Both the position numbers and the translations under genes were made by a program. DNA of 64,000 bases from Clavelina lepadiformis (Eukaryota; Chordata; Ascidiacea; Aplousobranchia; Clavelinidae): contig NC_135245.1 of NCBI RefSeq assembly GCF_947623445.1, positions 1,495,501 through 1,559,500 of the forward strand. Reading direction: 5' to 3'. Below the pieces are notes generated by a model, which did not search any database, was not told the DNA's origin, and saw only the letters and a list, made by a program, of their open reading frames with translations. Below are positions 19,903-63,807 of the stretch, piece after piece. Within the stretch, counting starts at the first letter, position 1. Each line of letters opens with the position of its first letter.

Positions 19903-20496
19903 TTATTGCTTTTCAAAAAATTGCTTGCTTCCATCCAAATCAGGTTTAATGGTGTCTTGGCCCGGCTTCCAACCTGCAGGACAGACCTCGCCGTGCTTAT
20001 CCGTGAATTGGAGAGCTTTGACCAATCTCAGAGTTTCATCGACTGACCTTCCAACAGGCATGTCATTGATAGTAATCTGCCTCAAGATGCCCTTGTCATC
20101 AATGATAAAGAGGCCTCTATAAGCGACGCCCGAATCTTCTTCAAGAACACCGTAATCACGTGAGATAGCCATATTTTTATCGGCAATCAACGGCAATGGA
20201 ATTGAGCCTATGCCACCGCGCTTTCGAGGCACGTTCATCCAAGCGTGATGACTGAACTCGGAATCAGTTGAACAAGCCAAGAGTTCACATCCAATCTCTT
20301 GGAACTCCTTCAAACGATCAGCAAATGCGATGATCTCGGTCGGACAAACAAAAGTGAAGTCCAACGGGTAGAAGAAGAGTACGACATATTTTCCCGAGTA
20401 GTTGCTCAGCGAGATATTCTTGAAATCACCACATACAACTGCTGTCGCGGTGAACTGAGGAGCAGGCTTTCCAATTGAAGCTTTTCCGGTTGACAT
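19903..20496 (-). CDS. Prdx: Typical 2-Cys peroxiredoxin (Prdx1/2-like), single exon
   Basis: A 197-residue intact protein of the usual family length. It reduces hydrogen peroxide and organic peroxides in the cytosol using thioredoxin. The peroxidatic cysteine lies in DFTFVCPTE (about residue 53) and the resolving cysteine in GEVCPAGW (about residue 174). The conserved arginine near residue 128 lies in [12 protein letters not shown]. The GGLG motif linked to over-oxidation sensitivity reads GGIG, and the C-terminal YF motif reads FF (KQFFEKQ). There is no signal peptide, so it is Prdx1/2-like rather than secretory Prdx4. The coding region is uninterrupted, unlike its neighbours; it may be a retrocopy or the gene may have lost introns. 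The intact frame and catalytic residues argue that it works. Confidence 0.96.
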
Positions 20497-20519
20497 TTCT
20501 ACTTAAGTTTAAGAAACCT

Positions 20520-31621: not shown

Positions 31622-33711
31622 CAGTGGTTCTTAACGTGGGCGCTACCGCCCCCCAGGGGGCGTTTTTGATTTTTAGAGGGGCGGAAATACTCAGGGGGCG
31701 CTATGGGGGGCGCTATATTCAGAAGGTGTAACGATATTAACCTCACTGCAAATTAATAATAATGCGCATTGTCTGGTCTGATGCTTAATTGATTCGCAAA
31801 ACGCTTAATTGATTTGCAAAACGTAGTCAGTCAGTCAGTCTGTTAGTTAAACTTCTGCTTGGGCTAGTTTAGGGTGTAACGTCCAAATCAGCATTGTTGT
31901 TTATTCAAATTATATGATTTAAGACTGAGTGATAATGATTTATACGATTTGTGAACCGTGACCTGCTTGAAGTCATTAAAATGTGCTTTGTTGACGCCCC
32001 GTGGAAAATCGCACACTATTGGTGAAGAACTTATTATACCAGCTGTGAAAGAAATCAACAGTACTATGATGGCCACTCAAAAAGATGTAACACCTTCGAT
32101 TCCACTGAGCAATAGTACTGTGTCTTCCAGAATTGATGAAATGGCAATTGACATTGAAAATAAACTTTGTGATGAACTCAAAACAACACAATTTTCTTTA
32201 CAGCTTGACGAGACAACACTACGCGACAATGAAGCTTTGCTAATGGCTTATGTGCGCTATATAAATGCCAGTCATAAAGTTATTGAGGAGTTTCTGTTTG
32301 CTGAACTATTAGAGGTCGACACTAAAGATTCAACGGTTTATAAGGCAGTTGAACAATTCTTTAAACGGAAAGGAATTCCACTTTCGAATGTTATTGCATG
32401 TGCAACCGATGGAGCACCATCAATGACTGGACGCCATCGTGGATTCCTGGCACATCTTAAAAGAGAAGTTCCGGACATATTTACATTCCACTGTGTCATT
32501 CACAGACAGCATTTAGCTGCAAAGCATCTCAGTGGCAGATTGCATAGTACCCTGCAAGCTGTTATCAGAGCAGTGAATAAGATTAAAGCCCATCCATTGA
32601 ATGACCGCATATTTCGCCAGCTTTGTCATGAAAATGAAGAAGAATTTGAACGGCTCATGCTACATACAGAAGTCCGGTGACTTTCAAAAGGAAAATGTCT
32701 ACAACGCTTTCATGACCTCTATGATTCTGTTATTGATTTCTTTAAGTTTCAATTATTGGATGAGAAAGTGAGTTCAGATTTGGAAAGCAGAAGAGCAGAC
32801 GTTGCTTATTTGTCTGATATTTTCAAGAAATTAAATGAGGTCAACATTAAATTGCAAGGAACCAAAATGTGTCTCATCAAAGCAAAGGGAATAATAATGG
32901 CATTTATTAGCAAATTAGATTTCTACAAAAATTGTTTACTAAGGCTAGACTTAAATCAGTTTCCTAGCCTAAAAGCCATAAAGGAAAACCAAACCGATGA
33001 TTCATGTTTATCAGACACTGATCTAGACTGCTATTCCTCTCATCTTCAAGCATTGAAAGAAGAATTGTTGATCAGATTTAAAGATCTCAAAGAATTAAAA
33101 ATACCAGAGTGGGTTGTAAATCCATTCCAGGCTGATGCAAACAATGCTGATCCAAATCTAGTTGAAGAACTTATAGACTTGCAAAATGACTTTGAAGGTA
33201 AAGTGTTGTTCCAGCAGATTGGCTATGAAGCTTTCTGGCCAAAGGAACAAGTTAAATATCCTCATCTTTGGGAAAAAATCAAAGTATTACTGTTAGCATT
33301 TCCTTCATCATACCTGGTAGAGAAGGGATTCAGTTCGGTCTTGCAACTCTTAACTAAGCAGAGAAATAGATTGCAAATATGTAAAAGGGGTGATCTGAGA
33401 CTCTTTTTATCAAATATTGAAACTGATATACTTAAGTTGGTTAAGCAAGTTATCACCAGGCCCAAGGTAGTCATTAAATACATTTTTCCTGCTTTATTAA
33501 TGTGTATTTTTGTGTATCAACCATTCTCTTATTATTTCTGTTTATTAAATAATATCGCTTGTCTCAAATACAAGGCAACCGGATTTGTGATTAAGCCGGT
33601 CTTTTCGCTAAACATTTATAATTTTTAACACAGCCCTTTCATTATGGTGGGCGGCAGACTATGGAAACCTCTGAAAAGGGGCGCTGGGGGAAAAAAGGTT
33701 AAGAACCACTG
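31622..33711 (+). mobile_element. hAT DNA transposon, nearly whole, transposase interrupted
   Basis: The element is 2090 bp. Perfect terminal repeats CAGTGGTTCTTAAC are flanked by a perfect 8-bp duplication TTCTAAGG (31614-31621 and 33712-33719). GGGGGCGCT motifs repeat just inside the ends. The transposase reads on + from about 31958 to 33628. It has the QLDETT, CATDGAPSM and CVIHRQHL hAT catalytic-core motifs and a C-terminal dimerisation region (PSSYLVEKGFSSVLQLLTKQ). The frame breaks once, where the Trp expected after HTEVR is TGA (32678-32680), and continues in the same frame directly after it. No BED zinc finger is seen upstream, so the copy probably also lost its 5' coding part. It resembles the ZBED5/SCAND3-type hAT group. 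Perfect target duplications suggest a young insertion. Confidence 0.92.
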
Positions 33712-35021: not shown

Positions 35022-38000
35022 ATGCTACATATTATTATTAAAATAAGCCCGGCGATTCTCTTTGTGACTTTTTACCAAGGTGAGTTATTGCTATCTCGAC
35101 AATAACGGTGAATACATTTGTACATTAGTACAAAGTTCATTTGTGATACAAAGAATTTCGTACTCGCATGAACAACTGTTAGTTTAACAAATGTTTGCAC
35201 GAAGTGCGGTAACTTTGGTTATTGCTACGCTCTGCTGTGTTGACTATTGTTATAAAGCGGTTTTGTAATGTTTTTTTACATTCAGTTTGCGCATACAACG
35301 AGGAGTTGCTGCATAGAGCATGCAGGCAAGAGGATGGCTTGTTTCTTTGCAAAGATGGATCTCAATGCATGGAGAGGTTCTATGTGAAAGATGTCTTGGC
35401 ACACTGCGCCGACAAAAGTGACGAGCTATTTGGTAAATAAAGAATTTGACAAAGCCTTCTGTTGTTATTATTGTTGGATAACGAAACGAGTAAAACAACG
35501 TTCGATCCAAAATATCCTTCTCGAAGAATCTACAACGTTTATTGTGATCAGGATCGCTAAACTGTACGGACGACGAAGTGCAGTGCCGATTCACAGGACA
35601 ATGTTCTGCCCGCACACAAAAGAATAACGGATTGGATTGTCGGCTTGAACAACTCATGATTCCCTGTTTCTCGAATAAGGGTGAGTAGGAACTATAACTG
35701 TATTTGAAGCATCTTCTTTTGGTTAATTTTTACTTAGATTTCTTTACCAAACAGCGACCAAGTTTTATACAATGTCAGCAACGGACTATATGCCATCATA
35801 ATATGAAAATTATACTTGCTAAATTTTGTTACGTTTTCACTGAATTTTAAATATTTGACTGCTATAACGTTTATTTATCCATAACGTTTTTTACTTGTTT
35901 ATGAGCAGAGTTCACTTGCGCGAAAACAAAACTCTGCATTGAGAGATGGAAAGTAATGGATGGAAACGACGACTGTAGCAGCAACACCATACGAGATACA
36001 AGCGATGAACAAACTATGTTGCCTTCATGTAACGATCTCGAATACGCTTGTGACGTAACCGAGAATCAACCACGTCGTTGTATTCCCAGAGATTGGGTCA
36101 TGGACGGGGCACAAGACTGCTTGGCGGGCGATGACGAAAGAACGCCGTTTATGGATTGTTTCAACGAGACCGAATTTCTTTGTCCGAAACAAGGCAGATG
36201 CATTTCAAGATACCGTGTCATGGACAAGTTTGAAGACTGCAACGACGGGACAGATGAGCTTGGCCCGCTGCTGTGCAACTCGACACTGGAGTTTCGTTGC
36301 CAAGTGAACGGTCGTTGCATTCCCCGTTCTTGGCGCGGAAATAAACTGAACGACTGTTTTGACTGGAGCGATGAAGAAGATCTGTATTCTAACGAATCTT
36401 GTCAAACTCACGAATTCTTATGTCATAACATGAAGAGATGTATACCAACATCATACCTGTGTGACGGCATAGACCACTGCGGAGACTGCACAGATGAGAT
36501 TGAGAATTGTGAGGAGCCTAGGATGTTTCGGTGTTCGGGAAATGAAACCGGAAAATGCATCAATTGGGAATATTCGTGCGACCAATATCGCGATTGTTCA
36601 GATTTTTCGGACGACATTACTTCGATAACCGGATTTAAATGTGAATCTAAAGTAACTGCAGATTACAGTCGTTATTGTGTTATACCACAGTGGACCCTTG
36701 AGAGTTCATACTCATCTTGCAATGACAACTCAGATATTTGCTACAGAAACGAAACGTTTCAGTGTGCCCGGTGTCTAAACAACAAAACTGTAATTGCACC
36801 GCGACAAATCTGCGACGGTGTCGTGGATTGCCCAGATCTAACGGACGAATGCCTTTGCTTTCAATATCAACACAAGCAAACTAATCAGGTCTGTGAACGA
36901 GTTTGTTATGGATTCGATTCCAACGAATGTTCGCAATGTGGACCTGGAGAACTGTTGTGTCCTGAAGATAAAGTTTGTTTATCTAAGAATAAGATATGCA
37001 ACGGTGTTATTGATTGTCCGCTGTCTGGACTGGATGAAAAAGCTTGCACAGATCAAAGAACTACTGGGACTACGTCAATTGTTCCTGATTTCCGCTGTCC
37101 GGATATATCTGCCAAAGACAAAACACTTCTTGGATTCTTAAACTTGCCTGTACCTTTAACGACTTTTGTTCCCCTTGAAGCAATAAGGTAAAGTTGTGTT
37201 TGATGTTGTCGTTATTTGTCACGAAATACTTCATCCAAGGTCTAACCGTCAGACGTTTTGAAAAATTTTAGGTTATCTTAAAATCGATAATTGATCGACT
37301 TTTAACTTGCTTGGTTAAGCAATATGAACATTTTTTGTCTCAAATAAATTGTATCGAACCTGTCACGGGAATCTTATGCTTTAATTAGATGCAACGGCAT
37401 CGTAGAATGCGCTTTCTTTGAAGACGAATGCAGCGATGAAGCCAACTGCACTGACAAGCCGCGAGTTTGCAAAGAAATTCCGCTAGAAGTAGGCATAACT
37501 TACAATCTTTAATACCGGTAAAAAAAAGTTTAAAGTTGTTAAAAGACGATTTTTTGTACAAACATTTTTCAGTGATATTTCTAAAACAATGTTTAGTTCC
37601 GATCGTAAAAAAAATTCCAAGTGCACACACTTGTATCTTTTAGACGTCTTCTCCCAACTACTCGTTTGGATCAATTTCATTGGAGTTCACATCTCGCAGA
37701 TGTTCTAACGACTTTCGTCAAATCATTGCTGGTTGGTCGGTCTGTAATGGTATTCTAGAATGTTTAGAGAGTGGCCTGGACGAAAAATACTGTCCGGATA
37801 GAATTAAATGTGATGCAGGAGAAATAAAATGGCTAGTAGGCAAGTACTACTGGTCACTTACATCAAGAATATAGACATTATTTTTAAAATTGTTGGGCTA
37901 AAGTTGATATTTAACACCTTGCAAAGTTTTGTAATATACAAACCGTAAAAATCAGTAAATGAATAATTTAAACAAAAAATTTTAACCTTGTAATATCATT

Positions 38001-39486
38001 TTCAGGTCTAGGTGAAACAAGAAAATTAGTTAGCGTTTCAAAGGACAAAGAATGCGACTTGGTGGCTGATTGTCTCGATTACGCTGATGAAAAGAACTGC
38101 AGCACAGACACACATTTTTATTGCGAAAATGGAAAACCGCTTTTTGTTCCGAGGACAAGAGTAGTCGACGGTAAACCGGATTGTGACGACCAGTCGGATG
38201 AGTGTCCTGAATCTTACTTCGTGCAAACCGGTATCTCGTCAAGGGAAGAACTCATCAAGCTGCTCGCGTTTCGAATTCTTATCTGGTTCATGGCGTTGTG
38301 CGCTCTCGTTGGTAACGCTCTTGTTGCAATTTGGACCATAAGGTCACTGGACTTTAAATCGTTCGGATCCTCAGGGAAGTCAAGTGTTGGAAAAGTGAAC
38401 AAACTACTGATTTTGAACCTGTCCGTATCGGATTTTCTCATGGGCATCGCCCTGCTTATAATCGTTATTGAAACTGTGATATTTTCTGGTAAATATTGCT
38501 TGAACGATAAACCTTGGCGGAGTGGACAAACCTGCCAGTTAATTGGAGTATTAGTCGCTTTGTCAAGTGAAACTTCCGTGCTGACCTTGGTTTGTCTTGC
38601 TAGTTATCGTCTGTACACCATATACTGGCCTTACCAAAGTCGGTTTGTAAGGCTACGCGTGTTGGCAATCTGGTTGTTAATCGTCTGGTGTACTTCGCTT
38701 GCGGTTGCAGTTTTGCCATTGGCCGCTTCACTGTCACGTGATATGATTACTAGTATGTGGATCGAAAACAACAAATTCTTTCTCACTGATATTCTTTCGT
38801 TTTCTGACTTGAAGAAATTTGCTCAAAGGATCACAATTTTGAAAGGAGTGAATTCATCACAACATTTACCGAATGATTGGTATGGTTTGGTAGATTATCT
38901 AACCATAACTTTCCCGGACGAAGCACCAAAAGTAAAAGCATATTTCGGTTATTACGGTTCAAGTGGTTTGTGTATTCCTAGGTTTTACAGAACCACAGGA
39001 GACACGTCTGATATCAACACTTTGTCATCGGTTGTGATCACTTTTAACTTTGTGGCGATGGTCTACATTGCTGCTTGCTACACAGCTGTGTTCAAGCGAA
39101 CGACAAAACAGCGAGTTGGCCAAAGCAACTCAGAAGCACAACAACGCAGACAACGGCACACACAACGAAAGATCACCGCTCTTATATTAACCGACATGTG
39201 TTGTTGGCTTCCTATTTGCATCATGACGTTTCTAAGCATGGCGGGTATGTCATTGGAACCTGCAGCTTATGCCGCATCGGCGGTGATATTACTCCCGATC
39301 AACAGCTCAATCAACCCGATCATATACACGGATGTGATTCCTCGACTCGTGAAAGCGTTTAAAGCAAATTGTGCCAGGGTCAAATACTCACAAAAGAAAA
39401 ACCGAAAAAGATTGAAAGAAGTTTCCCAAACTTCAAACCAGAGTGCACCAAACACGAAAACGGCCCAAGCCTCCTCTGTTTTGTGA
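35022..39486 (+). CDS. LDLa-repeat rhodopsin-class receptor, copy A (relaxin-receptor-type 7TM)
   Basis: Exons are 35022-35079, 35286-35432, 35552-35680, 35909-37187, 37389-37488, 37644-37839 and 38006-39486; all phases match, giving 1129 residues. A signal peptide (MLHIIIKISPAILFVTFYQG) is followed by about 14 LDLa-like cysteine modules (e.g. RCIPTSYLCDGIDHCGDC, CNDGTDE, CDDQSDEC). Exon 7 holds the seven helices: TM1 IWFMALCALVGNALVAIW, TM2 with NLSVSDFLMG, TM6 TDMCCWLPICIMTFL and TM7 LLPINSSINPIIYT. The TM6-TM7 region is closest to relaxin receptors and snail GRL101. The DRY motif after TM3 reads SYR. No leucine-rich repeats are present, unlike RXFP and GRL101. It is likely a plasma-membrane receptor; its ligand is unknown. 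Intron 6 uses a GC donor. Confidence 0.93.
37840..38005 (+). other. GC-AG intron in receptor copy A
   Basis: The donor is G|GCAAGT and the acceptor TTTTCAG. Only this donor keeps phase 1 into exon 7, which begins GTCTAGGTGAAACAAG. The matching intron of copy B (48644-48493) also begins GCAAGT, so the non-canonical donor predates the duplication. GC donors typically need a strong GCAAGT consensus, as seen here. Confidence 0.75.
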
Positions 39487-41116: not shown

Positions 41117-41369
41117 AGGGCTTCTCAAACTTTTTAGTTCTGCGACTCCTTGATAGGTAGCCTACAAGTGAAAGATAAACGTCTAATTACAGACATCAAG
41201 TGGTGTTTTTGTTTCTGGCAAAATCATACAAATGCACACAATCCAACAAAATACAGTAGCTGTAGTCTACCGTAATAAAAGAACCACGTAATGGCGATAG
41301 CAAAGCGAATAAAAAATTAACAACAGATAATTCAATAATTGAATTTGTTTCACGACCCTAAAATTTCTC
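41117..41369. mobile_element. hAT-like MITE, truncated at arm A breakpoint
   Basis: Begins AGGGCTTCTCAAACTTTTTA, matching the right end of the whole copy at 45261-45578. It ends abruptly within CACGACCCTAAAATT, where third-copy receptor sequence starts. About 58 bases of its far end are missing compared with arm B. Confidence 0.75.
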
Positions 41370-41671
41370 TTATATTAATCGACATGTGTTGTTGGCTTCC
41401 TATTTGCATCATGACGTTTCTAAGCATGGCGGGTATGTCATTGGAACCTGCAGCTTACGCCGCATCAGCCGTGATATTACTACCGATCAAAAGCTCAATC
41501 AACCCGATCATATACACGGATGTGATTCCTCGACTCGTGAAAGCGTTTAAAGCAAAGTGTGCCAAGGTTTCACGGAAAAATAACCGAGGAAAAATGATCG
41601 AAGTTTCTCAAACCACAAAATTAACTGTGCAATCTAAAGAATCCATAGCTCATGTTTCTTCTCCTCTGTGA
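41370..41671 (+). pseudogene. Third receptor copy, 3' fragment only
   Basis: About 100 residues matching TM6 to the C-terminus of copies A and B: DMCCWLPICIMTFLSMAG, LLPIKSSINPIIYT and PRLVKAFKAKCAK. It then has its own diverged tail ending HVSSPL and a stop at the same place. It starts abruptly at CTCTTATATTAA, fused to a truncated MITE, so an apparent in-frame start (MNLFHDPKI) is chimeric. The coding part is very similar to A and B, while its 3' flank (41672-42810) is clearly more diverged. That suggests an older copy whose coding part was kept similar by conversion or selection before truncation. Confidence 0.85.
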
Positions 41672-42810
41672 AGTTTTAAATGTTTAGCGAAGAGTCAGAT
41701 TTGCAAGAACCCAATTGAGATTCGATGACTGTTCTAGTGAACATCTCGCGTTACTCCCAACTATGTTTAAAATACCGTCTGAATGTCACTTATGTTATGT
41801 TCGGAAACATTTTATTGTAACAATTTGTGTATTACATTTCATTTATTAATTATAACTTGTAACATGGCGCGAACGATCATCAGATTACTTGTTGGGTATT
41901 TAACACACGAATCTTTCGCGATCGTTCCATTTCCAGAGTAGTACATTAGTAGTACAAGTACATTCAATATGTTACAGGAATGCATCAGTTAACGTTTAAG
42001 TTGCTTCACGTCTTTGAAAATGTTTTCAATGTTTTAGCCACGTCAACGTGCAGCTAATTTCCTTAGTGCCGTGAATCACTGTTTGGTTTTGTTACAAAAT
42101 TCTTTTCTAGGGAAGCAGCAAAAGACGAACGCTTACACTCGTTGGGTACTTAACGTGTTGTAATCTTCAGGGATCACTTCGTTGCCATTGTAATTGTTTT
42201 ATTCATTCCATGAAAACAGTTTGGTTTTGTTTTCTTTTCACTATGTTACTCGGCGATACCTTGGTATGGATATTTGCTTTCTTTGTCATTCATTTCCTCG
42301 TTACAGGCAAAGTTAGAAGTTGTTTGAAATTTGGCGATGTTTTATGTGGCGTTAAATTACGGTCAACTCAAATTAGAAAAGATAATGTAATTATACAACA
42401 TGCAAATAATTATACGTAAAACATGAGTTTATACAAAAAAAAAACAAAAGAATAAAAAGAGAATTAACACGAGCCAGCAGTGAACCTGCACTGACGAAAG
42501 CATCTGTTGAACCGTTTCGTTAAAGATAAAATTAAAATTAATAGCAGCAGATATCTTATATTTACATGCAACATATTCCGAAGTGACACGCAAACATATG
42601 CAAGTCAACTTCAAAGTTGCGTCAATTCTTTGAAAATTGTTTCAATGTTTTCGTCGCCGCAAAACGTCATTTTCAGAGAAAGCTTCAACGTCGTCCTTTT
42701 AACTTAAACTGCAGTCTGTGCGGGTACGCTGAATGACGTAAGCATACTTGATGTGAAATATCACGTGATGATGGGAACGGGGAAGTTCTGGCAAATGTTC
42801 AACCGGAACT
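41672..42810 (+). repeat. Diverged third copy of receptor 3' flank
   Basis: Resembles 39487-40500 in the same direction. Shared landmarks include AACTGTT...GAACATCTCGCGT...TTACTCC near 41730-41760. At 42605-42810 there are ACTTCAAAGTTG, GTTTCAATGTT, AACGTCATTT, CTGTCTGTGC, GCTGAATGACGT and AAGTTCTGGC. Identity is much lower than between arms A and B. It ends at about 42810, where IAP exon sequence begins on the other strand. Confidence 0.7.
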
Positions 42811-43366
42811 CTTCGTTGCCTGGCGTGGGCTGGTCTGGCTGCATTTCGGAATTGTGCCACCACGTCTTCCACAAAAGTGATGCCTTTGTGTCGGAGAACG
42901 TATTCGCAACTGCAGATCAACGAGATTTTACTACAGTGAAGTTTACTAAACGAGCCTAATGCATTTGACTGGCTAATCGTTACTGTTTAGCGTTAATGAT
43001 ATGTCATGGATATCGGATTTTTATTCGTTGTTTTAAGATCACACTTTCCAGCAAATTCATAACACGTCACGTGCTGTCACTGTGCACGTCACAAGTTACT
43101 GTACTTTATTTTTCCCTACTTACTTAGGAAACCATTTTGCATGTTCTATCCACGGGTCTTCGTTTAGGTTCCATCGGTGCAGGACTCCGTTGCAGTAGAA
43201 GCACTTTACTTTGTCGCCTTCTCTCAAATAAAGGAAACCAGCTTCGGCGAGCTCTCTTCGTGACGCCAAAATATGGTTAGGCCACTCACGAAAAGTAGTA
43301 CATCGACTCTCTATGGAGCACATCGCCGGACTGCAAGGGTCGAAACACGGGAAGAGCTCTTCATTT
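42699..43366 (-). pseudogene. Truncated IAP gene: BIR domain fused to receptor-flank sequence
   Basis: Two exons are visible, 43366-43124 and 42909-42699, with GCTTGCAG and TCTGCAG acceptors and an AA|GTAAG donor. The first encodes a BIR domain: TTFREWPNHI, GFLYLREGDKVKCFYCNG, then EDPWIEHAKWFPK. The second supplies the last zinc cysteine (CEYVLRHKG). It parallels exons 3-4 of the whole gene at 62140-63807. After about 100 bases the second exon crosses into receptor 3' flank DNA (about 42810) and stays open for about 37 more codons to a stop at 42699. UBA and RING parts are missing. Upstream exons were not identified. It could be a dead remnant or a transcribed BIR-only chimera. A BIR with all four zinc ligands (CxxC, H, C) is intact. 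Confidence 0.8.
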
Positions 43367-43369
43367 CTG

Positions 43370-45260
43370 CAAGCAATGATGCAATGCTTGTTGATTATTT
43401 TAGGCCTTTTACCTTTACCATAAAACAAAAACTTCGCTTATACGAAATGCATTTTGGTGGTGACTTATATACAACCCGCCACAGATATGCTAAATTTGAA
43501 AACAACCGATATTACTTTCAATCTACTTTGCGAACAGCAGCTTAACAAACAATTAACTATTAGTTTTTTCCTTACCCGCCGCTCTCTTGGTTGATAGAGG
43601 AAGTTCTGCCGGATGTTTCTATTATATTCATGACGAAAATGTTGTATCGTCAGGTTCGATAGAATACAACTGATAATAATTATTCGACGACTAACTGAAG
43701 ACAACTTTAAAAAAACTCGAATTAAAACAGAAGTTTCCTGTGCTCTCCAGTAAGCTTGCTGTTTATGTAACTGTTGCCAACAGTGACTGCCAGGCTTTTA
43801 TACACAACGCCCTCGCTTTTTCGTAGCTCTTAAGTAGGTGATTCCCCGCTTTTTGAGCGACTGAACGAGCCCAGTCACAGGAGGCCTTTGTTTGGCGATG
43901 TTGTAATTCGATTGTTATTGGTTCCCCTTGTTGCGTCATCGCTTTCACAGCTGTCACCCCGAACGAGCGAATGTCGTTCTCGCATAATTAGCTGGTATGA
44001 TATTCCCTTAGTCAGCACCGAATGGAAAGTTTGTTTAATAAGATGGAGTGTTATTATTATTGTGTAAATCGATCTTGGACGTTTATTTTTAACGGCTTGT
44101 GCCATTGACTAATTTGGACGGAGATCCCCTTGGCTACGACGAGGCGTTTTCGATGACATAGACAGTACATAACAAAAGAATCCTCCAAGGTAGTTTTCAT
44201 TTGCCCCAGCTGGAACTTTCCACGCGCATCCACGCCCTACAAATCATGCCCAAATCACGTTGTGACATGATCTTCATTAAACTAATTCTTTTGTTTTTAT
44301 ATGATGTTAATGAAAGTGTGGACAGCACGCCTCAAAAAACTGTGCTTGCGAAAAGATTGCGCAACTTCAAAGTTTGTTTGTTAGATGTTTCAATTGCTTT
44401 GATTAATTATTTGTCCTTACTGTGTGTAATCGATTGATAAATCCGCAACGTAACCCGTGTAAATCCTATCGATCGCCTTTGTTTTGATGGCGATGAATAA
44501 CAACGGCACACTTAAAGCGTTTTATTCGAGACATCGACAAGTGTGGATACAATAGCAGGGCACAAGCGGCCACTGATGTTTTCTATAGTTTTGGTATTTT
44601 TTCGCAACGATTAGTTTGTTATGTTGCAATAATTTATAAAGACCGTTAATAATAGCTCTTTGTAAGCATCACGCTGATCCGCGGCGACAACAGAAGTATC
44701 AATCGTACAACAAGAAATCCAACAGCGCCAGCCTATATGACGTTACCAGTAGGCTGTTACTGTTAGTATACGGCCTACATCTGTTTTATTTGTGATTTCA
44801 GGAGAGCCTTCAGTTTACCGTTTAGGGAATCATTTCGAAAAAATGGTTTACAGGAATTCATTATGAAATTAATATTGTGATTGCAAAATGAAAATTAACA
44901 TTTCCTGTGCCTTGGCCCTAACGCGATTAAAAATACATTTTTTGGTTTTAGAAGAAATGAACACTCTACAAAGAAACTTGTATAAAACCATAGGTTATTT
45001 TCGGCCTACACTTTATTTAAAACAGTTCACCAAAATAGCGCAAGCAAAGCAAACCGCTCTTCGCAGCCAACGTCATGGGTGGACGAGTTTTTGTAAACAA
45101 AATAATCGATAATCTTACGAAATCCAATCTTACGCAGCGCTTTACGCTTCGGGGAGATAAAATGCAAACTGTGCACAGCAACAATAACAAAGTGAGTCAG
45201 CAAACGCGTTGCGCGGTAAACAAAAGTATAGAATAAACACTTGGGTGAGTATGGCCTACA
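43370..45260. other. Palindrome spacer, gene-poor
   Basis: Lies between the truncated IAP gene and arm B. It contains a diverged copy of the dispersed repeat (about 43775-43960). Open frames on both strands have no domain signs. If the truncated IAP gene still has upstream exons they should lie here on the minus strand; none could be matched. Confidence 0.45.
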
Positions 45261-47017: not shown

Positions 47018-50000
47018 TCACAAAACAGAGGAGGCTTGGGCCGTTTTCGTGTTTGGTGCGCTCTGGTTTGAAGTTTGGGAAACTTGTTTCAATCTTTTTC
47101 GGTTTTTCTTTTGTGAGTATTTGACCCTGGCACACTTTGCTTTAAACGCTTTCACGAGTCGAGGAATCACATCCGTGTATATGATCGGGTTGATTGAGCT
47201 GTTGATCGGGAGTAATATCACGGCTGATGCGGCGTAAGCTGCAGGTTCCAATGAAACACCTGCCATGCTTAGAAACGTCATGATGCAAATAGGAAGCCAA
47301 CAACACATGTCGGTTAATATAAGAGCGGTGATCTTTCGTTGTGTGTGCCGTTGTCTGCGTTGTTGTGCTTCTGAGTTGCTTTGGTCAACTCGCTGTTTTG
47401 TCGTTCGCTTGAACACAGCTGTGTAGCAAGCAGCAATGTAGACCATCGCCACAAAGTTAAAAGTGATCACAACCGATGACAAAGTGTTGATATCAGACGT
47501 GTCTCCTGTGGTTCTGTAAAACCTAGGAATACACAAACCACTTGAACTGTAATAACCGAAATATCCTTTCACTTTTGGCGCTTCGTCCGGGAAAGTTATG
47601 GTTAGATAATCTGCCAAACCATACCAATCATTTGGTAAATGTTCTGATGAATTCGCTCCTTTCAAAATCGTGATCCTTTGAGCAAATTTCTTCAAGTCAG
47701 AAAACGAAAGAATATCAGTGAGAAAGAATTTGTTGTTTTCGATCCACATACTAGTAATCATATCACGTGACAGTGAAGCGGCCAATGGCAAAACTGCAAC
47801 CGTAAGCGAAGTACACCAGACGAGTAACAACCAGATTGCCAACATGCGTAGCCTTATAAACCGACTTTGGTAAGGCCAGTATATCATGTACAGACGATAA
47901 CTAGCAAGACAAACCAAGGTCAGCACGGAAGTTTCACTTGATAAAGCGACTAATACTCCAATTAACTGGCAGGTTTGTCCACTCCGCCATGATTTATCGT
48001 TCAAGCAATATTTACCGGAAAATATCACAGTTTCAATAACGATTATAAGCAGGGCGATGCCCATGAGAAAATCCGATATGGACAGGTTCAAAATCAGTAG
48101 TTTGTTCACATTTCCAACACTTGACTTCCCTGAGGATCCGAACGATTTAAAGTCCAGTGACCTTATGGTCCAAATTGCAACAAGAGCGTTACCAACGAGA
48201 GCGCACAACGCCATGAACCAGATAAGAATTCGAAACGCGAGCAGCTTGATGAGTTCTTCTCTTGACGAGATACCGGTTTGTATGAAGTAAGATTCAGGAC
48301 ACTCATCCGACTGGTCGTCACAGTCCGGTTTACCGTCGACTACTTTTGTCCTCGGAACAAAAAGCGGTTTTCCATTTTCGCAATAAAAATGTGTGTCTGT
48401 GCTGCAGTTCTTTTCATCAGTGTAATCGAGACAATCAGCCACCAAGTCGCATTCTTTGTCCTTTGAAACGCTGACTAATTTTCTTCGACCACCTGTAAGA
48501 AATGATTCATCAAGCCTACATATGTAAATTTACATATTCATAATTTGCAAAAATTTACAATTTGGTTAGCTTGGTTAAAATATATATCAAAGCATTAAAA
48601 TTTCATTAACATAATTTTAAGGAAAGACAAATAGTTGCACTTGCCTAGCGGCCAGTGTATATCTCCTGCATCACATTTAATTCTATCCGGGCAGTATTTT
48701 TCGTCAAGACCACTCTCTAAACATTCTAGAATGCCATTACAGACCGACCAGCCAAATATAACCTCAAGAAGATGTTTACATCTGCGTGAAGTGAACTCCA
48801 AAGGGATAGAACCAAATTTGAAATTGGGAATATTTGTCTTGAAAAAAAAGAACGTTCACATTACAGAAATTTTTACATCTTGAAAAACTTTCTTCGAAAC
48901 GTTGCTAATTAGTGTCCTTTAAAAAAGAATTGCTTTGTTTAACTTTTAACAACGTCAAGAAAAAAAGCTATGTTTACTTCATTCAGAGGAATTTCCTTGC
49001 AAACTCGCGGCTTGTCAGTGCAATTGGCTTCATCGCTGCATTCGTCTTCAAACTTGCCGCATTCAACAATACCGTTGCATCTAATGCAAAACAAAGAATG
49101 CGTGCGAAAGGTCTAATTGGAAGGAAGTCCATTTCAGGTGCAAAAAAGTTCATGTAAGACAATCATACAAGACAAACAATTATGGATACCAAACAATTGC
49201 AGATAATCTTCAATTTCATAGCAGATTTCAACGAATAAGCATAAGTGGTTGGATGAAATATTTTATAAAAGATTTAATTGACATTTCCATTGAAGTGTTC
49301 ACATTGAAGTTTTAAGATAAAAGAAACGCAAATACATCAAAAACTTTACCTTATTGCTTCACGGGGACCTAACATCGTTAAAGGTACAGGCAGATTTAAG
49401 ATCTCAAGAAGTGCCTTTTCATTTGTTTGAATATCCGGACAGCGGAAGTCAGTAGCGATTGACGTAGTCCCAGCAGTTCTTTGATCTGTGCAAGCTTTTT
49501 CATCCAGTCCAGACAGCGGACAATCAATAACACCATCGCATATCTTCTTCTTAGATAAACAAACTTCATCTTCAGGACACAACAGTTCTCCGGGTCCACA
49601 TTGCGAACATTCGTTGGAATCGAATCCATAACAAACTCGTTCACAGACCTGGTTAGTTTGCTTGTGTTGATATTGAAAGCAAAGACATTCGTCCGTTAGA
49701 TCTGGGCAATCCACGACACCATCGCAGATTTGTCGCGGTGCAATCACAGTTTTGTTGTTTAGACACCGGGCACACTGAAACGTGTCGTTTCTGTAGCAAA
49801 TATCTGAGTTGTCATTGCAAGATGAGTATGAACTCTCAAGGGTCCACTGTGGTATAACACAATAACGACTGTAATCTGCAGTTACTTTAGATTCACATTT
49901 AAATCCGGTTATCGAAGTAATGTCGTCCGAAAAATCTGAACAATCGCGATATTGGTCGCACGAATACTCCCGATTGATGCATTTTCCGGTTTCATTTCCC

Positions 50001-51474
50001 GAACACCGAAACATCCTAGGTTCCTCACAATTCTCAATCTCGTCACTGCAGTCTCCGCAGTGGTCTATGCTGTCACAGAGATATGACGTTGGTATACATC
50101 TCTTCCTGTTATGACATAAGAATTCGTGAGTTTGACAAGATTCGTTAGAATACAGATCTCCTTCATCGCTCCAGTCAAAACAGTCGTTCAGTTTATTTCC
50201 GCGCCAAGAACGGGAAATGCAACGACCGTTCACTTGGCAACGAAACTCCAGTGTCGAGTTGCACAGCAGCGGGCCAAGCTCATCTGCCCCGTCGTTGCAG
50301 TCTTCAAACTTGTCCATGACACGGTATCTTGGAATGCATCTGCCTTGTTTCGGACAAAGAAATTCGGTCTCGTTGAAACAATCACTAAACGGCGTTCTTT
50401 CGTCATCGCCCGCCAAGCAGTCTTGTGCCCCGTCCATGACCCAATCTCTGGGAATACAACGACGTGGTTGATTCCCGGTTACGTCACAAGCGTATTCGAG
50501 ATCGTTACATGAAGGCAACATAGTTTGTTCATCGCTTGTATCTCGTACGGTGTTGCTGCTACAGTCGTCGTTTCCATCCATTACTTTCCATCTCTCAATG
50601 CAGAGTTTTGTTTTCGCGCAAGTGAACTCTGCTCATAAACAAGTAAAAGACTAAACAAAAAATTAGTAAGTGTGTGTGTAGATCTAATTAGTTGCTGACA
50701 TTTCATACGAAAAATTAATTGCAAAATAAAGAAGGCCGTTTAACAATCGGCAAATTTAAATGCTTGAAGTACAGCTGAATCATTTTCCGTATGACAAACA
50801 ATCCGCTTCCACTCACCCTTTTCCGACATACAGCGAAGTATGATTCGGTAAAGCTTACACCCTTTTTCTTTAATTTTTCTTGAATGAGGCACGCACTGGT
50901 TAGAAAGGCGACATCGTAGTTCGCTGTCGGTACAGTTCAGTAAGCCTGTATTTACAACATACGTTAAATGCTCCGATAAGTTCGCGATACAACCGTAACA
51001 GCACAAGACTTTGTCGGATTTTTGGCGTACCCAAATGCTCGTCACTTTTGTCGTCACAATCATAATCGACATCTCTCACGTCCGATCTCAAGATGCATTT
51101 TGATCCGTCTTTGCAAAGAAACAAGCCATCCTCTTGCCTGCATGCTCTGTACAGCAACTCCTCGTTGTAGCCACAAACTGAATGTAAATAGACATTACAT
51201 GACCATGTTTGAACCCAGGTTTGCTATGAACATGTTTCAGTCTAAACTTTACATCACATTCTTTGGTAATCAAACTTTGCTCTCTCTACTCAAGTGGTCT
51301 GTAATTTGTAATCGCGGGAACAATCTGCTTTTGCCAACAGCGTGACATTGATAATAATGCAACAACTGTAAATAGCAAACTTATTTACAGTTTTCATCTT
51401 AAAAACAAGTACTCACCTTGGTAAAAAACAATAAAAAACAAAATCTCCAAGCGTATTTTTTTAGTAGGTAGCAT
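47018..51474 (-). CDS. LDLa-repeat rhodopsin-class receptor, copy B
   Basis: Exons are 51474-51418, 51177-51031, 50945-50817, 50628-49350, 49080-48978, 48837-48645 and 48492-47018, the same structure as copy A. Exons 2-7 are open and in phase. Exon 7 differs from copy A at about 20 of 475 residues; TM6 and TM7 are kept (TDMCCWLPICIMTFL, SSINPIIYT). The large LDLa exon is nearly identical up to its last 35 codons. Exons 1-3, 5 and 6 are clearly more different: exon 5 has one extra codon and exon 6 one fewer. Exon 1 (MLPTKKIRLEILFFIVFYK) has one base fewer before the donor than copy A (TTTTTACAAG against TTTTTACCAAG). With the same splice sites it then leaves the frame of exon 2. Unless another start or donor is used, the signal peptide is lost. 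Intron 6 uses the GC donor. Confidence 0.85.
48493..48644 (-). other. GC-AG intron in receptor copy B
   Basis: The donor is G|GCAAGT and the acceptor TTACAG. It preserves phase 1 into exon 7 (GTGGTCGAAG). It is homologous to 37840-38005 in copy A; apart from the splice signals the intron bodies look different. Confidence 0.75.
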
Positions 51475-55546: not shown

Positions 55547-56456
55547 ATGTCCATGTCCGGTATATTACACATTTTCGTTCCGTTTGTTTTCTTTTGTCTG
55601 TTTTTTGTCGTAGTGGTATCCTCTATAGCTATAGAAAACAATATCCTGGAAAATCATAACACAAACACCACCAAGTAAGCTTTAAAATAAAGTAGTTTAA
55701 AGTTTAACGATATGTCAGGTATAGACGTTATTTGCTTAATAATTTTATGTTGCTTTTATACAGAGCGCTAACCACTAAAAAGTTAAACGACTCTAACGAT
55801 GACGACTATTATTCTACGTACGACGATTTATTCTACGATAACGAAAAGCAAAATATAAAAGACATCGTAAATTCGGAATTCGATAGACGTAGAGACGAGA
55901 TCGAACAAATGCAATACAAAGAAATCGAGGTATGGACAAATAGTAACTGACCACTTTGTTATCTCGAACAAACGTTTTAACACAAAGTTGTTGACAGCGA
56001 TACATTTGGAAAGACGCGCGCTGTGATTGGAAGAGTTCTTTGGTTGAATCTCACGGCTTCTACGATCCTTTCCTTGGTGGCTGCAGAGACTGTTCGTCAA
56101 GTTGTCCCGAGAAAGACTTCCTATGCTACCACAAATGCAAATGTGAGTACTGTGGCGCTCTTTGCTGATTTATCAGCTTGCTGTTGTTTCTTAAACACTG
56201 TTTTGACACTAAGTGACGTTTCATCTTATGTTGTTGTGCAGTTTACACATTTAAGAAATTTCTCAAAAAACACGACGAAGAAAACCAGGTAAGAAACTCA
56301 AGGAAAAAACAGTAGGTAGTATTTTCCATACATACAATTATGAGAAACATTGACAGTATCTAATTTTACTTCGCAGAGAACACACCAAAGCCTAAATTTA
56401 CAAGTTCATGTACTTCAGGTCTTATTGCCTTTATGCTTCTTCATAAACATAGGTAA
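55547..56456 (+). CDS. Small secreted/membrane protein with a TACI/BCMA-like cysteine-rich domain
   Basis: Exons are 55547-55674, 55764-55929, 55998-56142, 56242-56288 and a last exon from about 56379 (or 56377) to 56456; phases match. The N-terminus (ILHIFVPFVFFCLFFVVVV) is a signal peptide or anchor. Exon 2 is very acidic with clustered tyrosines (NDDDYYSTYDDLFYD), a possible tyrosine-sulfation region. Exon 3 encodes a cysteine domain containing FYDPFLGGCRDCSSSC then CYHKC. The last five cysteines are spaced x2, x3, x6, x3, the same as TACI CRD2 (FYDHLLRDCISCASIC), and the FYD-x-(L/F)L stretch sits at the BAFF/APRIL contact motif (DxL). A basic helix-prone stretch follows (FKKFLKKHDEENQ). 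The last exon is ambiguous: two adjacent acceptors give different frames, one ending HKHR. No full-length second membrane span is certain, so it could be a secreted decoy. It may be a tumour necrosis factor receptor-superfamily member. Confidence 0.7.
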
Positions 56457-57223
56457 GATTTCACGCGATTGTGATTCGACAGTTACTACAAACATAAATA
56501 TGAAAACCATAATTCTTCAATTTCTAGTGAGATGGAGTTAATTATAAGTTGTCGATGACTAGGGCATTGTACGATGCTCAATTTATATTAGCTGAGAGTA
56601 ACCGCAAACTCAAACATAAAGATAAGGACAAAATTGCAGGTGCTAGGAGCAATTAGCAAAATAAGCAAGGTTTGGCTGTTTTGCTGGTTCTGCGTGAACA
56701 TACATAGTAACGAACCATTATGGGACGATGATGTAGTTGCTAGCGTATGCCATGCTGATGAGCTTATTAGGTTGTAGCCTACTGCATCGTTAAATACCGT
56801 AACAATATCTCCTACCTATTAACAACGAACATACAACGTTGTTCTAGGATTGCTGGTATTTTGCTCGGAGAAATACAAGAAAAAAATGAAAAGCTTCAAC
56901 CGACGAATCCACGGAAACGCACAAGGCGATGTTGACCACGGCATGCTTTAGCAATGGACATAGACTGGAGCGGAGTGAACAAATTTTATTCACGTCTTTC
57001 ACGACATTATTCTCTTTTCACGACATTATTCTCTTTTCACGACATTATTCTCTTTTTACGCCATTGTCGTTTATTTTTGAATTTGCATTGCGCTTGCAGT
57101 GAATTATTATTAGTCGAAACGTTTGAAGTAGGATTACGTCATTGTGGCAAAAAATTTGTTACCTCTGCTCCGTTTTTAAACTCTGTAAAGCTTTTGGTTA
57201 CTTGATACATTTCACACACGAAT
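56457..57223. other. Intergenic with a short tandem repeat
   Basis: Besides a possible alternative terminal exon of the TACI-like gene near 56527-56560 (acceptor TTTCTAG), it holds three copies of a 20-bp unit CACGACATTATTCTCTTTT at about 57000-57056. Confidence 0.5.
57000..57056. repeat. 20-bp tandem repeat, three copies
   Basis: Unit TTCACGACATTATTCTCTTT repeated with almost no variation, plus a degenerate fourth. Simple minisatellite. Confidence 0.85.
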
Positions 57224-62139: not shown

Positions 62140-63807
62140 ATGGCGTCGGTGCTGGTGCCTCGGGTTCTTCCCTTCGAAACAGATCAATATAAAAACAGCG
62201 CGTTACAGCTTTTGACGCCGACAAAAGAAACGCGTATTCCAGTGGGTGCACTTGTGTAAATGGCTTTCCATCAGTCAACGCACCATTTTGTTGCAGGAAA
62301 AAATTGTCAAAGGTATGCATTAGTCTAACTTGAAAAGTTTTAAAAAATCTTGTATAATGTAAACTTTCGTGTACACACTCTTTTGCTATTTATCAAGTAC
62401 AACGTCGTAAAGAAACATTTTTTTCGCAGTTTTGAAAGATCTTTGCCATCTTTCCCAAAAGACTACTTCACTGAGCAAAAGTAAGAAGATATAACTGATT
62501 TACAGAGCCGCCGGTCCGATGCTTTTAAGACGCAACCTTTTCTAAACTATTCCCTCTACTTGTTCGTGACAGAGTGCAAGAACAACGCAATAGGATGTTT
62601 CCATGTTTCAATCCCTGGACACCAGCCATGGCGACTTTCGACGCCCGATATCGTACTTTCAGCAACTGGCCGGATCGCATACGTGCAACGAAACAAGAGC
62701 TCGCCGATGCAGGATTTATTTATTTGAATAAAGGAGACCGCACGAAATGTTTTTACTGCAACGGGGGACTCCAGTTCTGGAGTTACAACGAAGAGCCTTG
62801 GTTCGAACACGCAAAATGGTACCCTAAGTGAGTAGAACATGTTTTATAATTTGGACTTCGCACAATGCAATAAATAATCGGTTGCATCAAGTTAAAAGGG
62901 TTCCGTAAGTTAACGTTAGTACGTAGCGATAACTTTTTTCTTTCTTATTTCAGCTGCGAGTATCTTCTTCGACGAAAAGGAGTAGAGTACGTCCAAAGCG
63001 TTGCAAGTCGGTTTCCCAATCTAAACCGACCAAACACAAACAATCCTGCCCTGCGACCATCTCGGCCATCGGCAAGTAATGCCGTTTGCTGCTCTTCTGG
63101 CGACTCTACTAGTTCTTGCCATACATCACGTCCGGCTGAAGCCGACACATATTCTCGCAAGGAAGCGTTTGTAGAGAGAGTGGAAGAAGAAATGTCCTCG
63201 GAGATAATAAAACTTGCTTCTCTTATGGGGTTTGAAATGGAATCTATAAGGAGAATCGTAGAAAGGTAATCAAAATACTTTTGAATAGAGTAAAATTGTG
63301 ACTTTTCATCTACGACAAAGAAAAAAAGCTCTCGCTAGCAACATAGCACCTTATACTTTTTTGATTGAATTTGACAGGAAACTTCATACTTCTGGCGACA
63401 AATATACCAACTTGACTAGTCTAGTAGAAGATTTGCAAAAAGATGAACACGAAAGAAATCTTCATGAGGGATTGAAGAACAAACAAGTAGAACAAGATAT
63501 AGTCAGTTCTAAAAAGCAGTTTGTACTGGAAAATCGTAACAATGAACGAAGAGACGACAATGACAAAAACGAAGGGCCAATGGACACAGAAAATTTAGCT
63601 TTTCATCAAAGTTCTGATAAAACAGAAGAACGATTAGAAACTCTCAAGAAGGACGCTTTGTGCAAAGTGTGCCTTGATCGCAATAGCGAATGCGTGTTTT
63701 CGCCCTGTCACCATTTGTGTTGTTGTCTGCAATGTGCTTCCGCGCTAAAATTTTGCCCAATATGCAGGGTTGAACTGAAAAAAATTATTAAAGTATATCG
63801 TTCGTGA
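62140..63807 (+). CDS. XIAP-like inhibitor of apoptosis (one BIR, UBA, RING), five exons
   Basis: Exons are 62140-62255, 62430-62480, 62573-62827, 62954-63265 and 63378-63807, all GT-AG and in phase, giving 387 residues. The BIR domain (about residues 70-150) has RTFSNWPDRI, AGFIYLNKGDRTKCFYCNGG, EEPWFEHAKWYPK and CEYLLRRKG, with zinc ligands CxxC-H-C complete. The UBA domain (EIIKLASLMGFEMESIRRIV, then SGDKYTNLTSLVEDL) and C-terminal RING (LCKVCLDRNSECVFSPCHHL, FCPICRVELKKIIKVYRS) follow XIAP closely in order and sequence. XIAP has three BIRs, this protein one. IAPs bind and inhibit caspases through BIR surfaces and ubiquitinate partners through RING. The N-terminal 70 residues (exons 1-2) match no domain, so more upstream exons are possible. 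A poly(A) signal lies at 63954. Confidence 0.92.

What the first reader, a model, noticed from the sequence alone, without database searches (positions are those of the whole stretch)
55547..56456. TACI/BCMA-type receptor domain in an invertebrate gene
Exon 3 holds FYDPFLGGCRDC followed by cysteines spaced x3, x6 and x3. That equals TACI CRD2 cysteine for cysteine and keeps the FYD-x-(L/F)L contact motif used to bind BAFF and APRIL. This class of TNF receptor is known for its role in vertebrate B cells. A tunicate-like homologue preceded by an acidic tyrosine-rich segment would bear on where the BAFF/APRIL system came from, and the missing clear membrane span suggests a soluble form.
Basis: partly seen in the sequence, partly recalled or inferred. 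Interest (0 to 1): 0.85.

Follow-up and report, generated by a model that had tools for sequence, protein, structure and literature searches.

The report
Sea-squirt TACI/BCMA-like receptor gene
A sea-squirt gene appears to encode a small membrane receptor whose cysteine-rich head resembles the human B-cell receptors TACI and BCMA, and it has about ten relatives in the same genome, so this type of receptor head may be older than vertebrates.

Summary
At 55998-56142 an exon encodes a six-cysteine domain with FYDPFL followed by C-x2-C-x3-C-x6-C-x3-C, the TACI CRD2 spacing from the second cysteine on. The gene is larger than reported: six exons, 55547-56951, 221 residues. The missed sixth exon completes a membrane span, so 'soluble' is not supported. 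Contig lengths point to Clavelina lepadiformis, chromosome 6.

Pfam does not recognise the window domain; its likeness to TACI alone is borderline, though equal to that of BCMA. The new evidence is ten further loci in this genome with a single domain of this type. Gene A scores against Pfam TACI-CRD2 as BCMA does (20.6 versus 21.0 bits). The window domain fits their profile beyond its cysteines (17 of 4000 shuffles as good), and an intron after the last cysteine has the same place and phase in the window gene, A, B and D, not in C or the E loci. The genome also encodes a ligand closest to APRIL, EDA and BAFF.

I read it as a divergent member of a tunicate single-domain TNF-receptor family, TACI/BCMA-like in form. 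Orthology and ligand binding are unproven.

The parts
55547..55674 (+). exon 1: start codon, hydrophobic signal peptide (or signal anchor), first stalk residues
   Evidence: open frame, donor CAA|GTAAGC, hydropathy up to 2.96 over 19 residues
55764..55929 (+). exon 2: acidic tyrosine-rich stalk (DSNDDDYYSTYDDLFYDNE, residues 52-70) and a charged segment; no cysteine
55998..56142 (+). exon 3: six-cysteine TACI/BCMA-like domain (residues 107-145 from first to last Cys)
56058..56075 (+). FYDPFL, counterpart of the TACI DxL hairpin tip (D-x-F-L here)
   Evidence: both low-confidence models place a strand on either side of it
56143..56241 (+). phase 1 intron placed one codon plus one base after the last cysteine, the place used also in paralogues A, B and D (not in C or the E loci)
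56242..56288 (+). exon 4: basic juxtamembrane stalk
56377..56452 (+). exon 5: first part of the membrane span
   Evidence: donor TAG|GTAAGATT joins acceptor CTAG in frame; hydropathy 2.44 over 19 residues across the junction; tail 194-221

Best explanation
The window holds a six-exon gene for a 221-residue single-pass membrane protein: signal peptide, acidic tyrosine-rich stalk, one six-cysteine domain, membrane span, short basic tail. It is a divergent member of a Clavelina family (11 loci found, itself included) of single-domain TNF-receptor-type proteins whose domain has the TACI/BCMA build: a short first module with a hairpin, then a C2 module with CxxxC...CxxxC. The most likely mechanism, inferred, is that the FYDPFL hairpin docks in the groove of a trimeric TNF-type ligand of the EDA/APRIL/BAFF clade, such as the one at C9:1.93 Mb. 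Three receptors would be gathered per trimer, and signalling would go through a partner or co-receptor, since this tail has none of the five TRAF-binding motifs tried; a decoy role is possible for the same reason. Shown by computation: frame and splice signals, cysteine framework, fit to the family profile, presence of the ligand gene. Inferred: fold, ligand, signalling.
For: Gene model and span; coding-like codon usage. Likeness to TACI: with exons 3+4 as query TACI CRD2 is the first of 20 rows in a search of 177,635 PDB sequences, E 0.49, not significant; the yardstick, TACI CRD2 against its best BCMA row in the same library, is E 0.34. Smith-Waterman score 58, equal to TACI-BCMA 58; 2 of 20,000 full shuffles and 308 of 20,000 cysteine-fixed shuffles reach it. 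Relatives: gene A (C1:4.375 Mb) finds B, C and D (E 2.5e-4, 2.7e-4, 0.117); B finds D at 1.8e-7; D finds six more loci E1-E6 (E 0.09-2.5), all six with the framework. Window exon in the profile of A-D: hhalign score 25.6, 1 of 300 cysteine-fixed shuffles as good (TACI 26.0, also 1 of 300; BCMA 16.4, human and frog Fn14 14.7 and 20.7, Grindelwald 19.5); hmmsearch 15.7 bits, 1 of 300; profile of ten loci 15.8 bits, 17 of 4000. Tyr seven and Gly two residues before the second cysteine are invariant in the window and A-D. Same intron place and phase in window, A, B, D. Link to TACI/BCMA: gene A against PF09305 TACI-CRD2 E 4.5e-4, 20.6 bits (human BCMA: 3.5e-4, 21.0; cut-off 22.9); gene C hits TACI-CRD2 0.028 and BCMA 0.16; 0 of 18 cysteine-fixed shuffles of A and C hit either. 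In the PDB TACI is the only molecule found by gene A's domain, E 0.077. Ligand: APRIL 2.9e-7, EDA 3.5e-7, BAFF 1.7e-6, Eiger 2.5e-5; tunicate TNFSF-T2/T3 group with vertebrate EDA-type genes, 98% bootstrap (PMC12843592, section 14).
Against: The window domain matches no Pfam model of this kind (only Fer4_3 at E 0.65 for the 40-residue core). It scores poorly against BCMA alone (33; 3442 of 20,000 cysteine-fixed shuffles as good), and its score against a TACI+BCMA profile is matched by 163 of 4000 such shuffles. TACI and BCMA are not clearly above their own shuffles in the ten-locus profile (403 and 327 of 4000); frog Fn14 does better (65 of 4000). In hmmsearch with A-D, TACI is matched by 25 of 300 shuffles. 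B and D have no TACI or BCMA row, nor have four of the six E domains, the four scanned. Gene A's second Pfam row is unrelated (PF08090, E 0.015), and 4 of the 18 shuffles hit unrelated families at E 0.05-0.18. The A-D profile finds an unrelated peptide (5ji4) and an oxidoreductase before TACI in the PDB; gene C finds 5ji4 (E 0.024) and frog Fn14 (3.4), not TACI. Adding the window exon lifts TACI from E 0.69 to 0.10, but 52 of 300 shuffled windows lift its score as much. The six E loci have no splice donor at the shared intron place and C has no intron there. Single-sequence searches with the window exon or protein find no other member. Structure models are low confidence (pLDDT 63 and 53); Foldseek finds no match at E 0.001. 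No transcript evidence, no second species.
Confidence: 0.7

Rival explanations
1. A narrower reading inside the best explanation: it is a TNF-receptor-type single-domain protein of a tunicate family, but the FYDPFL resemblance to the BAFF/APRIL contact motif is convergent. The family descends from a general single-domain TNFR (Fn14- or Grindelwald-like), and its ligands are recognised otherwise.
For: A, B, C, D and the E domains lack the D-x-L tip (YFSSTG, YPAPTG, YYDGGTG, YPAATG, YFSYTG); only C keeps the Asp. The window has Phe at the L82 position. Frog Fn14 has 5.1 bits in the ten-locus profile, 65 of 4000 shuffles as good, and is a weak PDB hit of gene C (E 3.4). Grindelwald has a C2 module of CxxxC...CxxxC type without DxL (PMC8024323, passages).
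Against: Genes A and C hit TACI-CRD2 (and C also BCMA) about as well as TACI and BCMA hit each other's models. Fn14 has CxxC spacing, not CxxxC; PF12191 finds nothing over its cut-off in this genome. Grindelwald itself does not score in the profile (0.1 bits).
Confidence: 0.45
2. The other narrower reading: it is the tunicate pro-orthologue of the vertebrate TACI/BCMA/BAFFR receptors and binds the EDA/APRIL/BAFF-clade ligand by its DxL-like hairpin.
For: D-x-hydrophobic-L at the exact place, Asp six before the second cysteine; likeness to TACI equal to that of BCMA; presence of the ligand clade in tunicates.
Against: No synteny or tree was possible; Pfam misses the window domain; gene A, not the window gene, scores best with TACI-CRD2; no TRAF-binding motif in the tail. 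One review's BLAST survey lists BAFF and APRIL homologues in lampreys but only CD40L in tunicates (PMC9141580, passages).
Confidence: 0.25
3. The domain is a disulfide-rich fold unrelated to TNF receptors that has met the same spacing by chance.
For: Best single-sequence scores are not significant on their own; iron-sulfur proteins and a short peptide score similarly.
Against: Two paralogues point to TACI/BCMA models, 0 of 18 cysteine-fixed shuffles do; signal peptide, domain and membrane span recur in A (hydropathy) and, read by eye, in B, C and D.
Confidence: 0.15
4. The exons do not form an expressed gene (pseudogene or mis-joined exons).
For: No RNA evidence could be seen; exons 1 and 5 score negative in codon usage.
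Against: Six exons, ten splice sites and one frame without a stop; 0 of 3000 non-coding samples as coding-like; intron place shared with A, B and D.
Confidence: 0.07

Closest known systems
TACI (TNFRSF13B), CRD2
   Same: Cysteine spacing from the second cysteine on, Tyr-Asp at seven and six residues before it, Leu three before it, membrane-anchored
   Different: TACI has two CRDs (recalled; speaks of its second CRD); first loop x14 against x19; L82 of DxL is Phe here; here an N-terminal signal peptide, an acidic Tyr-rich stalk and a short tail without TRAF motif
BCMA (TNFRSF17)
   Same: One CRD of the same two-module build, D-x-L-L hairpin (D-P-F-L here), single membrane span
   Different: Longer C2 loop (x8); BCMA is a type III protein (PMC6001812, passages); direct sequence likeness to the window domain is weak
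Fn14 (TNFRSF12A)
   Same: Single CRD, short membrane receptor
   Different: CxxC spacings in the C2 module (letters); low scores; no hit of PF12191 over cut-off in the genome
Drosophila Grindelwald
   Same: Single CRD with a CxxxC...CxxxC C2 module in an invertebrate TNFR
   Different: Eight cysteines, X2 first module, no DxL motif (PMC8024323 passages); no profile similarity here
Clavelina paralogues A-D and E1-E6 (this work)
   Same: One CRD of the same framework; Tyr and Gly of the hairpin; signal peptide and span in A, and by eye in B, C, D; same intron after the last cysteine in A, B, D
   Different: By eye, B, C, D and the two E loci examined have coiled-coil-like stalks; none has the D-x-F-L tip; C and the E loci lack that intron

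Membership tests
TACI/BCMA (BAFF/APRIL receptors) | six cysteines in the A1-C2 order with C-x2-C-x3-C-xn-C-x3-C | tested here: met
TACI/BCMA (BAFF/APRIL receptors) | DxL hairpin tip, Asp six before the second cysteine | tested here: inconclusive
   Asp and following Leu present, the L82 position is Phe
TACI/BCMA (BAFF/APRIL receptors) | match to Pfam PF09305 or PF09257 | tested here: not met
   no match of the window domain at E 10 or better; paralogues A and C match below the cut-offs
TACI/BCMA (BAFF/APRIL receptors) | single membrane span | tested here: met
   hydropathy only; span placed at residues 172-193
TACI/BCMA (BAFF/APRIL receptors) | TRAF-binding motif in the tail | tested here: not met
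   none of five motifs in the window tail; PAQPT in B, SNEE in D, none in A or C; E tails not tested
TACI/BCMA (BAFF/APRIL receptors) | two-module CRD fold | tested here: inconclusive
TACI/BCMA (BAFF/APRIL receptors) | binds BAFF or APRIL type ligand | not testable with these tools
   a candidate ligand gene is present
Clavelina single-CRD receptor family | profile score above cysteine-fixed shuffles | tested here: met
   1 of 300, 1 of 300, 17 of 4000
Clavelina single-CRD receptor family | phase 1 intron one codon and one base after the last cysteine | tested here: met
   present in window, A, B, D; absent in C and in all six E loci, so it marks a part of the family
Fn14 | CxxC spacings of the C2 module and PF12191 match | tested here: not met
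   spacing CxxxC; genome search below cut-off and not in this gene
Grindelwald | eight cysteines, X2 module | tested here: not met
   six cysteines; no profile likeness
multi-CRD TNFR_c6 receptors (PF00020) | TNFR_c6 repeats | tested here: not met
   not among the 16 genome matches of PF00020 nor in hmmscan

The most novel reading that the evidence does not exclude
Single-domain receptors of the TACI/BCMA kind, including the hairpin that grips BAFF/APRIL, existed before vertebrates and B cells; tunicates expanded them into a family of ten or more that reads EDA/APRIL/BAFF-clade ligands, and the window gene keeps a form of the ancestral DxL tip.
Probability: 0.3. Interest if true: 0.85.

Novelty: new variant of a known kind. 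Interest (0 to 1): 0.66.

Why it matters
Tunicate ligands related to EDA, APRIL and BAFF are in print (PMC12843592). In the listings of the searches made here (some searches listed only 20 of 60, 15 of 346 and 12 of 294 papers) and in the passages I read, I saw no report of a TACI/BCMA-type receptor outside vertebrates; one survey counts three TNFRs in Ciona (PMC4979521, passage). A family of such receptors in a tunicate would put the receptor half of the BAFF/APRIL system before the origin of B cells and would make its original, non-B-cell role testable in a simple chordate.

Tried and rejected
Rejected: a soluble product (exon 6 found); a chance motif without a gene; Fn14 and Grindelwald as nearest relatives of the window domain; FYDPF elsewhere in the genome as a marker of relatives (41 hits on both strands against 42 for the reversed control; I read 12 of the 40 others, and none has the framework). 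Led nowhere: NCBIfam, single-sequence models and Foldseek, PF09257 over the genome, TNFR_c6 over the genome as a source of relatives. Error of mine: I read L009 and L011 on the wrong strand and nearly missed gene A; put right. Not pursued: gene models of the E loci.

Full report
What is there. The window belongs to a 209.06-Mb genome of 95 contigs. The seven large contigs whose lengths I saw (28.78, 26.53, 25.07, 24.62, 20.77, 19.51, 15.73 Mb) agree to 0.01 Mb with chromosomes 1, 2, 4, 5, 6, 8 and 9 of Clavelina lepadiformis kaClaLepa1.1 (210.1 Mb in 102 scaffolds; PMC10884593, passages); the window is on the sixth. The product has 221 residues: signal peptide, acidic tyrosine-rich stalk (residues 52-70), six-cysteine domain (107-145), span (172-193), tail (194-221), N-glycosylation sequons at 40 and 51. 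Codon usage over the six exons is coding-like, 0 of 3000 non-coding samples as high, with exons 1 and 5 negative on their own. Tyrosine sulfation of the acidic stalk is my guess from recall; no call tests it.

How strong the TACI likeness is. On its own the window domain is at the edge of detection: PDB phmmer gives TACI CRD2 at E 0.65 with exon 3 (third of 30 rows, behind two iron-sulfur proteins) and E 0.49 with exons 3+4 (first of 20 rows). The useful yardstick is TACI against BCMA, two receptors for the same ligands: best BCMA row E 0.34 in the same library. Local alignment scores are equal too (58 and 58), but 308 of 20,000 cysteine-fixed shuffles of the window domain reach it against 28 of 20,000 for BCMA, and the window domain against BCMA is weak. 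Pfam finds no TACI or BCMA match for the window domain.

Relatives in the same genome. A whole-genome search with PF09305 had gene A (C1:4375400-4375640, minus strand) as its best row, 19.8 bits, below the cut-off of 22.9. Read on the right strand it is a two-exon gene: signal peptide plus domain CPVDEYFSSTGSCFSCETLCGSSPKLCQLEC, then span and a tail. It finds B and D in tandem (C1:21.73 Mb) and C (C5:13.92 Mb, one open frame). A search with B finds A, C and D; a search with C finds A and D, not B. D also finds six loci at C1:5.97-6.32 Mb (E 0.09-2.5), five of them near-copies and one more divergent, with the same framework and a longer C2 loop (x10). In the two of these that I looked at there is an open stretch with a coiled-coil-like segment and a hydrophobic span, in one also a signal-peptide-like stretch; splicing was not checked. 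The window exon was not found by these searches; searched with itself it gives only itself, and the whole window protein gives its own six exons plus one unrelated row at E 2.1. It is tied to the others by profile, by the invariant Tyr and Gly around the hairpin, and by the phase 1 intron one codon after the last cysteine in window, A, B and D. C has no intron there and the six E loci have no donor there.

Link to TACI/BCMA. Gene A's domain scores 20.6 bits with TACI-CRD2 where human BCMA scores 21.0; its second row is an unrelated family at E 0.015. Gene C's domain has TACI-CRD2 and BCMA as its only two Pfam rows (with a longer query a third, unrelated row at E 7.8). 0 of 18 cysteine-fixed shuffles of A and C hit either model; 4 of 18 hit something unrelated at E 0.05-0.18. 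Against this: B, D, the four E domains scanned and the window have no such row, gene C does not find TACI in the PDB, and in the ten-locus profile TACI and BCMA are not clearly better than their shuffles, while frog Fn14 is. So the family is TACI/BCMA-like in build, and its exact place among single-domain receptors is open.

Ligand side. The genome has six PF00229 matches in three regions. The best, at C9:1.93 Mb, is closest in the PDB to APRIL, EDA and BAFF, with Eiger behind; the top row there is a chain with one APRIL and two BAFF domains. An upstream open stretch holds a membrane span and another a run of basic residues like a furin site; their splicing was not checked. A 2026 study places tunicate TNFSF-T2 and -T3 in a 98% branch with the vertebrate EDA-type (V22) genes; the passages I read are about ligands, and the word Clavelina does not occur in its main text (PMC12843592, outline, passages and section 14). 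An earlier paper found invertebrate EDA-like ligands grouping with EDA with low support (PMC5316386, passages), and a review's BLAST survey lists only CD40L for tunicates (PMC9141580, passages).

Mechanism. By analogy with TACI and BAFF, where the DXL loop is essential for binding (PMC5865128, passages), the FYDPFL tip would enter the ligand groove. This is inference: the position of L82 is Phe, no complex could be modelled, and the tail carries none of the five TRAF motifs tried, while those of B and D carry PAQPT and SNEE. A decoy or a subunit of a larger complex is therefore as possible as a signalling receptor.

Verdict. The claim I support is a divergent member of a tunicate family of single-domain, TACI/BCMA-like membrane receptors that I have not seen described. 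I do not file it as TACI or BCMA, since the Pfam and TRAF-motif tests were not met.

Noticed in passing
35905-39483 (+) and 47021-50632 (-): Two nearly identical inverted copies of a gene that reads as LDL-receptor class A repeats followed by a seven-helix receptor (relaxin-receptor-like layout); a further fragment at 41339-41668. Labels from reading translations, no profile search.
   Followed up: no
42702-43437 (-) and 62529-63804 (+): BIR-domain-like exons between the two receptor copies and an IAP-like gene (BIR plus RING) near the window end; read by eye.
   Followed up: no
19906-20502 (-): Peroxiredoxin-like open frame of 199 residues without interruption, read by eye.
   Followed up: no
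31955-33625 (+): hAT/FAM200-like transposase in two adjoining open stretches, read by eye.
   Followed up: no
G000 C6:19.89-20.24 Mb: Seven TNFR_c6 matches in about 350 kb, five over the Pfam cut-off; three identical FYDPF-coding DNA matches just beyond it lie in short frames without the cysteine framework.
   Followed up: partly
L074-L079 (C1:5.97-6.32 Mb): Local expansion of the E subfamily of single-CRD genes (YFSYTG hairpin, x10 C2 loop), suggesting rapid turnover.
   Followed up: partly
L010 1501-1560 (C2:1.49 Mb): FNDQLLTFCFSCRSIC followed shortly by a stop: strongly DxL-like but no first cysteine or second half seen; probably chance.
   Followed up: no
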